A stretch of 36,248 bases of DNA, taken from Oscillospiraceae bacterium (GTDB taxonomy: Bacteria; Bacillota; Clostridia; Oscillospirales; Acutalibacteraceae). The position numbers and the translations under genes were made by a program. Location of the stretch: positions 1 through 36,248 of the forward strand of contig SVPO01000008.1 of assembly GCA_015065795.1 (NCBI GenBank), written 5' to 3'. Shown here piece after piece: positions 27,827 through 31,226 of this stretch (the first letter of the stretch is position 1; every line of letters starts with the position of its first letter). The notes under the pieces are model-generated. The model did not search any database and had not been told where the DNA came from. It saw nothing but the letters and a program-made list of their open reading frames with translations.

Positions 27827-27859
27827 AAAAAGCCTGCCGACGCAGATGCGCCGACAGGC
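27827..27859 (-). terminator. Intrinsic terminator, minus-strand
   Basis: Minus RNA GCCUGUCGGCGC-AUCU-GCGUCGGCAGGC + UUUUUG; 12 bp with two G-U pairs that become A-C mismatches on the plus strand. Confidence 0.8.
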
Positions 27860-27907
27860 AGTTTTTCGGTTGTTAACGCTTATGCCTGGCATACAGCGTT
27901 TGTGATT

Positions 27908-28084
27908 ATCTCATTGGACTCACCTTTACATCAGGATTTACGGTCAATGACCGTTGTCCGCTCACTTGCAGGGCAAGTGGGAGTTGTTATCTCATTGGAC
28001 TCACCTTTATCAAAGATTTTCGGCTCTGAGCCGTTGTCCGTTCACTCACTGATGAGTGGGAGAAATCATTTCATTGGACTCACC
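27908..28084 (-). repeat. Tandem structured modules bounded by 17-nt box GGTGAGTCCAATGAGAT (three copies, ~80-nt period)
   Basis: Boxes at 27908-27924, 27989-28005, 28068-28084; intervening two-hairpin modules with compensatory changes; fourth diverged copy at 28488-28504. Confidence 0.85.
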
Positions 28085-28777
28085 TTTTCAATTTTTTCTA
28101 TGGGAAATATTCAATTGAAATTGTCAGTCACTGTATCTCGTGTGCCTCAGTTTCCGCGGATGATCTTCGGGTGTGTGCGTACCCAATATCTGCGGTTCTG
28201 ATACCGGCGGTCATGCGGCTTTTACGGATGCTGTACCCGTGCTCCGCAGCCTTCCGATATTCTCAGTTCCGCACATCTACGCGCATCACCGGTCGGATGT
28301 TCATCCGTTCCGCTTGAATCCGAAGCATCTCATAACAACAACAGTTGAGTGTGGCGTCTGCTGCCGAACCGGTAGTCCGCACTGTTGCGCGGGCGTCGGC
28401 GCTTTTCAGCCTCAAAATTGGATGATCGTCAATTCAAGATCATTGCGGTGCGGAAACTGAGACCCTTGAAATGTGACTCCTCTGCATATCTCATTGGCCT
28501 CACCCCGTTTTCTTTTTGTATTCACCGTGGATCCGGTATGTGCCGGTCGTTCGGTCTGCTGTTAATCTCCGCTGTAAGCGGTAAACAGTGTTTGCGGAAA
28601 AACCGCGTACATTTGATCCGTTGCCTGGAATAATATAAATCGAAAGAAGAAATATATATCCTCACAGACCGTTCTTCCGAACCCGAACCTGCGGTGGCTG
28701 CAAATTCTTTCCGCCTTCGTTCCGGCATCTTTTCTGCCGGAGGGAAAGGATTTGTGACATCTCCTTGTGTCACCTAT

Positions 28778-28806
28778 ATAATAGCAGATGATGTGTGAAT
28801 TGTCAA
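28778..28806 (-). promoter_or_regulatory. Sigma70-type promoter of the ncRNA locus
   Basis: Minus strand TTGACA (28806-28801), N17, TATTAT (28783-28778). Confidence 0.75.
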
Positions 28807-28912: not shown

Positions 28913-29239
28913 ATGACGTATAACGGAGGTAATGATATAATGGCTGATAAGGAATACAGTGCCGATATAATCACCCTGATCGACGATGACAACGTGCAGC
29001 ACGAGTTCGAGCTGCTGGATGCCATCGAGACCGACGACGGACGCTATGTTGCCCTGCTGCCCTATCTGGGCGACGATGCCGAGGGCGCGGCTGACGGCAG
29101 CGAGTATTACATCCTGCAGGTCGTTGAGGTCGAGGGCGGCGAAGAAGAGCTGACCGAGATCGAGGACGAAGAAATGCTGGATACCCTTGCGGAGATCTTT
29201 GAGACCCGCTTCTCCGAAATCTACGGCGAAGAAGACTGA
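28913..29239 (+). CDS. DUF1292 family protein (YrzB-like); start may be MADKEYS at about 28940
   Basis: DIITLIDDDNVQHEFELLDAIETDDGRYVALLPYL...YYILQVVEVEGGEEELTEIEDEEMLDTLAEIFETRF; GGAGG RBS before MADKEYS. Confidence 0.9.
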   Translation: MTYNGGNDIMADKEYSADIITLIDDDNVQHEFELLDAIETDDGRYVALLPYLGDDAEGAADGSEYYILQVVEVEGGEEELTEIEDEEMLDTLAEIFETRFSEIYGEED

Positions 29240-29290: not shown

Positions 29291-29563
29291 GACGGACGCT
29301 TGTCCGTGAACATCTGCTTTACCCCTGCCCAGTGCGTGGACTGTGCTTATATAACCCTACAATTAATTAAACGGGAGTTGGTCTCCGGCGACGGATTGCA
29401 GACCTCCCGGCACAGTCCTGAGCTGTGTTGGACGAAGGGAGCGCGAAAGCGTTGGGCTGACACCCACCTGCTATCGAGTAGCAGGTTATTTTAAGCGCAA
29501 TACGGCTGGGCGGGATCATACTAAAACCGAAGCACCCCGGAGAGATTCGGGGTGCTTTTTGTA
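29291..29563 (+). ncRNA. Structured noncoding RNA, probable 6S (SsrS)-like RNA; core about 29324-29514
   Basis: TGATATAAT extended -10 at 29276-29284; closing stem CCTGCCCAG (29324-29332)/CTGGGCGGG (29506-29514); GGACTGTGC (29338-29346)/GCACAGTCC (29410-29418); ACCTGCTA/TAGCAGGT hairpin (29466-29486) after GACACCC; terminator 29531-29560. Confidence 0.6.
29531..29560 (+). terminator. Intrinsic terminator of ncRNA
   Basis: AGCACCCCG / CGGGGTGCT + TTTTT. Confidence 0.9.
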
Positions 29564-30495: not shown

Positions 30496-30864
30496 ATGCA
30501 CAGTGAAAGAAAGCAAGGACGGCTGCTGCCAGCAATTGGCGGTCTTGCCGCAGGGCTGATAAACGGTTTGCTGGGCTCGGGCGGCGGAATGATCGCCGTG
30601 CCCGTGCTGGAACGCAGCGGAGTGAAAGCCAACCGCGCCCACGCCACCTCGGTGGCGATCATGCTGCCCCTGTCGGCGGTCAGCGCGGTGTTCTATCTGT
30701 GGGGCGGAGACGTTTCCCTCTCCGACGCGCTGCCCTATATTCCCGGCGGCATCGCAGGCGCGCTGCTGGGAGTGCTTCTGCTGCGAAGGGTCAGACCGAA
30801 GCTGCTGCGGCGCGCTTTCGGCGCGGTGGCAGTGTATTCAGGGATAAGGATACTGCTTAAATGA
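30496..30864 (+). CDS. Half-size TauE/SafE-family membrane transporter, subunit 1
   Basis: GGLAAGLINGLLGSGGGMIAVPVLERSGVKANRAHATSVAIMLPLSAVSAVFYLWGG. Confidence 0.85.
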   Translation: MHSERKQGRLLPAIGGLAAGLINGLLGSGGGMIAVPVLERSGVKANRAHATSVAIMLPLSAVSAVFYLWGGDVSLSDALPYIPGGIAGALLGVLLLRRVRPKLLRRAFGAVAVYSGIRILLK

Positions 30865-31226
30865 GCGGCTGGCTGATATCTACCGCCGCAGGCTTTCTTG
30901 CAGGTGCAGCGGGTGCCATGGGTCTGGGCGGCGGCAGCATACTGCTGCTTTATCTTACCCTCATCGCAGGCGTCAGTCAGATCGCCGCGCAGGGCATAAA
31001 CCTGATGTTCTTTCTGCCCTGCGCCCTTGCGTCGGTGCTGTTTTCGATAAAGTCGGGACTGATTGCGAAACGCGAGGCGCTGCTGGGTATCGCGGCAGGC
31101 GTTCCCGGCGCGATAGCCGGATGTCTGCTGGCAGGCTGGCTGGGGGGAGGACTGCGCACCCTGTTCGGCGTGTATATGCTCGTACTCGGACTGCGCGAGC
31201 TGCTGCGCCGCCCGGCGGAAGAATAA
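30861..31226 (+). CDS. Half-size TauE/SafE-family membrane transporter, subunit 2
   Basis: AAGFLAGAAGAMGLGGGSILLLYLTLIAGVSQIAAQGINLMFFLPCALASVLF; ATGA overlap with preceding ORF. Confidence 0.85.
   Translation: MSGWLISTAAGFLAGAAGAMGLGGGSILLLYLTLIAGVSQIAAQGINLMFFLPCALASVLFSIKSGLIAKREALLGIAAGVPGAIAGCLLAGWLGGGLRTLFGVYMLVLGLRELLRRPAEE

What the first reader, a model, noticed from the sequence alone, without database searches (positions are those of the whole stretch)
27827..28806. Candidate new ~0.95 kb structured noncoding RNA with its own promoter and terminator
Seen directly: the interval between the HD hydrolase (starts 27762, minus) and DUF1292 (28913, plus) has no convincing ORF. On the minus strand it begins with TTGACA-N17-TATTAT (28806-28778) and ends with a 12-bp hairpin plus U-tract (27859-27827). 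In between are many hairpins, e.g. GTGACA/TGTCAC (28773-28754), CCGGCA/TGCCGG (about 28740-28722), CGGAT/ATCCG, TTTCAATT/AATTGAAA. Several stems pair fully only as minus-strand RNA because they use G-U pairs that become A-C on the plus strand: the terminator, CCGGUAUC/GAUAUUGG (28207-28183) and ACGGGU/AUCCGU (28240-28224). That is independent evidence for strand and for RNA-level constraint. Inference: a large ornate ncRNA class comparable in size to OLE, ROOL or GOLLD. I do not recognise the conserved boxes from any named family.
Basis: partly seen in the sequence, partly recalled or inferred. Interest (0 to 1): 0.88.

Follow-up and report, generated by a model that had tools for sequence, protein, structure and literature searches.

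The report
Structured RNA gene with ultrashort ORFs
Next to the 6S RNA gene of many gut Clostridia lies an undescribed RNA gene, with its own promoter and terminator, that looks both folded and dotted with repeated ribosome-binding sites opening reading frames of only 2 to about 20 codons, so it may be a new kind of ribosome-engaged regulatory RNA.

Summary
The interval is a stand-alone minus-strand transcription unit: promoter 28806-28778 (11/12 consensus), terminator 27859-27827, no Rfam match. It belongs to an undescribed RNA-gene family. A box, GGTGAGTCCRATG, occurs three times in the window (28084, 28005, 27924) plus a variant (28504). In 301 same-family genomes it gives 97 hits against 6 for the reversed control. 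About 60 distinct intergenic elements share a promoter and boxes; in the 32 delimited ones a terminator follows. Many lie divergent from DUF1292, with 6S RNA beyond it.

RNA structure is supported: four compensatory pairs between two tandem modules inside the window, lower consensus energy than column shuffles in most related groups, and a ~0.7 kb covarying fold in one sister family.

"Noncoding" is not established. Each box is a Shine-Dalgarno plus start codon, and the frame usually stops after 1-2 further codons (MK*, MR*, MY*) or after a ~20-codon first ORF (window: MRYAEESHFKGLSFRTAMILN*). I read it as a fast-evolving structured RNA that loads ribosomes on minimal ORFs. Its target is unknown. 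It is not OLE, ROOL or GOLLD. Structural cores differ between sister families, so only the box architecture is shared.

The parts
28778..28806 (-). promoter TTGACA-N17-TATTAT (TG before -10); start of transcription inferred near 28771
   Evidence: near-consensus promoters (11-12 of 12 matches) upstream of the boxes in most homologous elements
28754..28773 (-). 5' hairpin GTGACA/TGTCAC
   Evidence: sequence and centroid fold
28492..28504 (-). box 1, variant GGTGAGGCCAATG (Shine-Dalgarno plus start codon)
   Evidence: same variant in same-genus L153
28429..28494 (-). ORF1, 21 codons, MRYAEESHFKGLSFRTAMILN*; counterpart of the short first ORF of homologues (L002 MYSEELHIIGFHTCVSCS*, L154 MYCSDEIQIIGFCTCRSTSR*, L153 MNYCEDTQIECFVPALCRRF*)
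   Evidence: pN/pS 0.47 pooled over homologous first ORFs, window not included
28009..28087 (-). tandem module A: box, mini-ORF and two hairpins (28058-28043, 28033-28021)
   Evidence: 4 compensatory pairs against module B, 0 broken of 11
28072..28084 (-). box 2 GGTGAGTCCAATG
28066..28074 (-). mini-ORF ATG AAA TGA (MK*)
27928..28008 (-). tandem module B: box, mini-ORF and two hairpins (27979-27963, 27954-27940)
27993..28005 (-). box 3 GGTGAGTCCAATG
27987..27995 (-). mini-ORF ATG AGA TAA (MR*)
27912..27924 (-). box 4 GGTGAGTCCAATG
27906..27914 (-). mini-ORF ATG AGA TAA (MR*)
27827..27859 (-). intrinsic terminator, 12-bp stem and T-tract
   Evidence: terminators end all 32 delimited homologues
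28913..29239 (+). divergent neighbour DUF1292 (PF06949), syntenic marker, not part of the RNA
   Evidence: found in 46 of 121 loci checked
29319..29520 (+). 6S RNA (RF00013), syntenic marker, not part of the RNA
   Evidence: also in 24 of 40 homologous loci scanned

Best explanation
The interval is one stand-alone transcription unit (about 28771 to 27827, minus) of an undescribed, fast-evolving RNA-gene family of Oscillospirales, often divergent from DUF1292 with 6S RNA beyond it. Its anatomy is a strong promoter, a translated first ORF of about 11-25 codons, then repeated near-identical initiation boxes (AAAGGTGAGTCCRATG) that open minimal ORFs of 2-4 codons, hairpins between the boxes, and a terminator. 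Most likely mechanism (inferred): ribosomes initiate at the boxes, add one or a few residues and terminate at once, so the folded transcript stays ribosome-occupied and protected. That engagement, rather than the tiny peptides, carries the regulatory effect, either through RNA refolding or by drawing on initiating ribosomes. Shown here: the unit, the family, the synteny, the box-and-stop pattern and RNA-level pairing. Inferred: translation, protection, and any effect on other genes.
For: Family: 97 box hits in 301 family genomes against 6 for the reversed control; promoters in most elements and terminators in all 32 delimited ones. Synteny: DUF1292 in 46/121 loci, 6S in 24/40. Of DUF1292 loci fetched without using the box, all 7 from the window's family (the window included) and 2 of 3 from family f8 carry the element. 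Translation-like signals: in loci found without constraint downstream of ATG, a stop falls within three codons of ATG in 29/55 boxes in frame 0, against 9 and 10 in the other frames; for box ATGs outside the exact search pattern 23/56 against 13 and 9, p 0.003. The triplet before AGTCC is GTG 106, TTG 4, ATG 3, CTG 2; codon 3 uses all four proline codons; codon 4 outside the search pattern is ATG 17, AAG 12, AAA 10 against AAC 1. ORF1 pN/pS 0.47; Ser written TCA or AGT in QF-x-SAV peptides. Structure: in-window modules with 4 compensatory pairs, 0 broken; consensus energy below column shuffles in most groups. Literature: a strong Shine-Dalgarno with a mini-ORF protects mRNA from RNase E, and a two-codon minigene acts in cis (PMC8708949).
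Against: No expression or ribosome-profiling data. Some boxes carry AAG/AAA where the start codon should be; there the only NTG start sits 0-1 nt after the Shine-Dalgarno, which is too close. Between close homologues, substitutions in the longer short ORFs are not concentrated at third codon positions, so peptide-level selection is weak. The box also starts ordinary genes (13 of 93 hits open an ORF of 60 codons or more), so it may be a generic initiation region. The in-window covariation rests on only two tandem copies. The frame-0 excess includes related sequences.
Confidence: 0.45

Rival explanations
1. A purely noncoding large structured RNA. GGUGAGUCC(R)AUG is an RNA or protein recognition motif and its resemblance to start codons and stops is incidental.
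For: In family f14 a ~0.7 kb alignment folds with 131 pairs, 97% of cells paired, 35 pairs compensatory against 7-14 in slid controls, and there the box itself is paired with GGGC..CACC near the 5' end. Some boxes lack a start codon. In first ORFs a GGRCU motif complementary to the box falls in different reading frames (sequences).
Against: In-frame stop excess, NTG variation at the start position and codon-like variation at codons 3-4; pN/pS 0.47 for first ORFs; several members show no excess structure; the f14 core is absent from the window and the other family elements searched.
Confidence: 0.27
2. A polycistronic micropeptide mRNA: the products that matter are the peptides (acidic first ORF, cationic ~10-mers such as MILRKAYIYIKK), for example signalling, membrane-active or toxin-like peptides.
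For: First ORF recurs with acidic residues near codons 4-6; QF-x-SAV and M-V-[TS]-E peptides recur across relatives.
Against: Two- and three-codon ORFs carry no usable peptide; longer peptides drift freely; RNA-level pairing is conserved in several groups.
Confidence: 0.1
3. A decoy for the 16S rRNA 3' end: the boxes, including those with AAG or CCA instead of ATG, pair with UUGGAUCACCUCCUUUCU and hold 30S subunits without productive initiation.
For: Box duplex with the assumed 16S tail runs beyond the anti-Shine-Dalgarno with one bulged base, -15.9 to -21.1 kcal/mol.
Against: A single ordinary strong Shine-Dalgarno sequence gave -17.3 in the same calculation, so the boxes are not exceptional; the genome's own 16S tail was not read.
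Confidence: 0.1
4. A cis leader or attenuator of the downstream HD-domain gene (27762-27313).
For: Same strand, ORF1 plus a terminator just upstream of the gene.
Against: A second promoter-like site lies between terminator and gene (27812-27784); the downstream gene differs between homologues judged from their sequences (e.g. a lipoprotein-like gene in L002, argininosuccinate synthase-like in L170).
Confidence: 0.05
5. Unselected intergenic sequence; boxes and hairpins are chance.
For: The same-genus copies are not alignable outside the boxes.
Against: 97 against 6 control hits, conserved promoter, terminator and synteny, compensatory changes.
Confidence: 0.02

Closest known systems
Dual-function RNAs (S. 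aureus RNAIII with delta-hemolysin, SgrS/SgrT, SR1; V. cholerae VcdRP, PMC8672173)
   Same: Independent transcription unit, structured RNA, one short ORF, little sequence conservation (RNAIII features from general knowledge).
   Different: Here several nearly identical initiation boxes open minimal ORFs; no base-pairing target known; no sequence relation.
Two-codon minigenes (phage lambda bar; LEE1/LEE4 leaders; axe-txe mg2, PMC8708949)
   Same: Strong Shine-Dalgarno, ATG, one or a few codons, stop; last sense codons here include AAA and AGA.
   Different: Known cases act in cis in the leader of a gene; here they come in arrays in a self-terminated transcript with no dedicated downstream gene.
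Large ornate RNAs OLE, ROOL, GOLLD (Rfam)
   Same: Large, structured, own gene; the f14 relatives have an extended covarying fold.
   Different: No Rfam match to the window or to 40 homologous loci; size varies about 160 to over 900 nt; translation-like boxes; synteny with DUF1292/6S.
6S RNA (RF00013)
   Same: Syntenic neighbour, likewise a stand-alone RNA gene.
   Different: Not homologous: cmscan finds 6S as a separate element on the other strand.

Membership tests
OLE / ROOL / GOLLD or any Rfam family | covariance-model match at gathering score | tested here: not met
   window; 40 homologous loci; f14 element; best RsmY 23 bits, cut-off 57
Structured RNA gene | compensatory base changes in homologues | tested here: met
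   in-window tandem modules 4 pairs; f14 relatives 35 pairs against 7-14 slid controls; column-shuffle energies. For the full-length window fold it could not be tested: no alignable homologue.
Structured RNA gene | own promoter and terminator | tested here: met
Dual-function RNA | translated short ORF in a regulatory RNA | tested here: inconclusive
   initiation box and frame statistics, pN/pS 0.47; no ribosome data
Dual-function RNA | base pairing with target mRNAs in trans | not tested
   no target search was run
Minigene (two-codon ORF) | Shine-Dalgarno, start, one sense codon, stop | tested here: met
   27995-27987, 27914-27906, 28074-28066 and many homologues
Minigene (two-codon ORF) | cis effect on a downstream cistron or peptidyl-tRNA drop-off | not testable with these tools
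   needs experiments
Same structural class as the f14 RNA | match to a model of the f14 core | tested here: not met
   model R1 hits L217 (160 bits) but not the window or other family elements; f14 core sequence motifs absent

The most novel reading that the evidence does not exclude
A new type of translational regulator: a structured RNA that captures several ribosomes on arrays of Met-X-stop ORFs, tuning global initiation or ribosome availability, possibly as a translational counterpart of the adjacent 6S RNA that tunes RNA polymerase.
Probability: 0.15. Interest if true: 0.92.

Novelty: new variant of a known kind. Interest (0 to 1): 0.72.

Why it matters
A stand-alone RNA gene recurring across gut Oscillospirales and next to 6S RNA has, as far as I found, not been described. 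If its mini-ORF arrays are translated, it would be the first case I know of in which minimal ORFs are the organising principle of a structured RNA rather than an upstream accessory of one gene. It would also show why conservation-based ncRNA searches miss such genes: the sequence turns over within a genus while box architecture and synteny persist.

Tried and rejected
Rfam at gathering and relaxed thresholds found nothing in the window. BLAST of the element found only itself and short pieces in relatives, and nothing in phages. Non-Clostridia hits of the 17-mer (Enterobacter, Polynucleobacter and others) were set aside as chance: those I checked mostly lie inside long ORFs. Peptide-only reading: rejected as main explanation because substitutions are not concentrated at third positions and two-codon ORFs cannot be messages. 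Attenuator of the HD gene: downstream genes vary. f14 and the window's family as one structural class: rejected for the core. Extended pairing with the 16S tail: kept as a rival only, since an ordinary strong Shine-Dalgarno scores alike. A 37-element fold z-score run timed out and was repeated with fewer shuffles. Three literature searches for sORF arrays or gut Clostridia RNAs gave nothing relevant.

Full report
OBSERVATION. The minus strand between the HD-domain gene (27762-27313, PF13328) and DUF1292 (28913-29239, PF06949) carries TTGACA-N17-TATTAT at 28806-28778 and a 12-bp terminator at 27859-27827. Rfam finds only 6S RNA (29319-29520, plus) and a tRNA in the window, and nothing credible in the interval even with relaxed thresholds (best E 0.63). 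The minus strand folds better than shuffles (z -5.1) and better than the plus strand (z -3.7). The G-U stems cited read correctly.

A FAMILY. An exact scan of 85,488 species genomes with the 17-base box gave 90 loci. About 30 of them are Clostridia intergenic regions of the same make-up; the non-Clostridia hits I checked mostly lie inside long ORFs. In 301 genomes of the window's family the shorter box GGTGAGTCCRATG occurs 97 times against 6 for the reversed control, in 78 genomes. About 60 distinct elements with a promoter within range were defined, most with near-consensus promoters. The 32 that could be delimited all end in an intrinsic terminator. Their size is about 160 to 950 nt.

SYNTENY. 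DUF1292 is next to the element in 46 of 121 loci checked. 6S RNA lies within about 2 kb in 24 of 40 loci scanned. Starting from DUF1292 alone, without using the box, all 7 loci from the window's family (the window itself included) and 2 of 3 from family f8 have the element in divergent orientation. Two of them (L226, L227) carry a box variant (CCCATG) that the pattern search could not have found. Most other families lack it at that place. Elsewhere the element has other neighbours, for example an iron-containing alcohol dehydrogenase-like gene in f14 (judged from sequence). The downstream gene varies, which argues against a cis attenuator.

THE BOXES LOOK LIKE INITIATION SITES. The box is a Shine-Dalgarno sequence (AAAGGTGA or GAAAGGGGTGA) five bases before ATG. 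Downstream of it the frame is usually closed at once: MK*, MR*, MY*, MYR*, MV*, MT*, MF*. In boxes found by a pattern that ends at ATG, a stop lies within three codons in 29 of 55 cases in frame, against 9 and 10 in the other frames. For box ATGs not matching the search pattern the numbers are 23 of 56 against 13 and 9 (Fisher p 0.003). Among all AGTCC words on the sense strand (130, against 18 antisense) the preceding triplet is GTG 106, TTG 4, ATG 3, CTG 2; the next codon is any of the four proline codons; and the fourth, where not fixed by the search, is ATG 17, AAG 12, AAA 10 but AAC only once. Related boxes read NTG-AGT-CCN-AAR-TAY (MSPKYKFFVKPFL*, MIPKYSFLRNAI*) and GTG-ANN-CCN-CCN-GAR (VRPPET*, VIPPETLA*). 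The first ORF of many elements is about 11-25 codons with acidic residues near the start: window MRYAEESHFKGLSFRTAMILN*; same genus L002 MYSEELHIIGFHTCVSCS*, L154 MYCSDEIQIIGFCTCRSTSR*, L153 MNYCEDTQIECFVPALCRRF*. Pooled pN/pS in first ORFs of homologues is 0.47. Other short ORFs keep their frame but not a third-position bias, so translation may matter more than the peptide.

RNA STRUCTURE. Inside the window the modules 28087-28009 and 28008-27928 are tandem copies. Their two hairpins differ at four base pairs, each compensated on both sides, none broken of 11, and none of this survives sliding the partner by 1-3 columns. This is the only covariation available for the window, because its genus mates are not alignable. 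In other groups the consensus folding energy is lower than in column shuffles (for example f14 -154.6 against -83.4, L224/L225 -113.4 against -51.2), though group f8b is not clearly different. In family f14 an alignment of 20 homologues folds over about 0.7 kb with 131 pairs, 97.3% of cells paired, 35 pairs with compensatory change against 7-14 for slid versions. A covariance model of the f14 core does not recognise the window or the other family elements and its sequence motifs are absent there. Several window-family members show no excess structure. So a large ornate fold is not a property shared by the whole family; promoter, boxes, first ORF and terminator are.

MECHANISM. My best reading is a structured, ribosome-engaged RNA: repeated strong initiation sites on minimal ORFs keep it occupied, protect it and perhaps control its folding. 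Shown: the unit, family, synteny, box-plus-stop pattern, and RNA-level pairing. Inferred: translation, protection, any trans effect. Literature on single minigenes gives the nearest precedent: a strong Shine-Dalgarno with a mini-ORF protects an mRNA from RNase E, and a two-codon minigene raises txe expression in cis (PMC8708949). The weak points are the boxes with AAG or AAA in place of ATG, and the absence of any expression data.

COMPARISON AND NOVELTY. It works like a dual-function RNA but with minigene arrays, and meets no Rfam definition. I rate it a new variant of a known kind (structured RNA gene with short ORFs), with a less likely but exciting possibility of a new kind of translational regulator paired in synteny with 6S RNA.

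Noticed in passing
29319-29520 (+): 6S RNA gene directly downstream of DUF1292; the order element / DUF1292 / 6S recurs in many homologous loci although the element itself turns over fast.
   Followed up: yes
L253-L275 (family f14): A ~0.7-1 kb covarying RNA sharing the box, with an invariant stretch GCCGATGGGCATACTGATGAGTAT in all 20 aligned sequences; apparently an undescribed large RNA family in its own right.
   Followed up: partly
L170, L136, L021, L161: Compact members whose first ORF carries a PP motif (MKDTPPESNLK*, MKDAPPKNYFK*, MKNETPPAHFIK*, MIRLEDTPPDGKAQIN*), a possible polyproline ribosome-pausing site; PP also recurs in the later boxes (VRPPET*).
   Followed up: no
L177, L112, L119, L024, and ORF1 of the window: A GGRCU(C) motif 25-45 nt after the first box could pair with GAGUCC of the box (window GAGGCC with GGUCUC) and mask the initiation site; it falls in different frames of ORF1.
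   Followed up: partly
L167, L156: Two copies of the box unit in tandem or within 3 kb; in L156 the box ORF overlaps the start of a secreted-protein-like gene.
   Followed up: no
30496-31226 (+): TauE/SafE transporter halves encoded as two adjacent ORFs matching the C- and then the N-terminal part of the profile.
   Followed up: no
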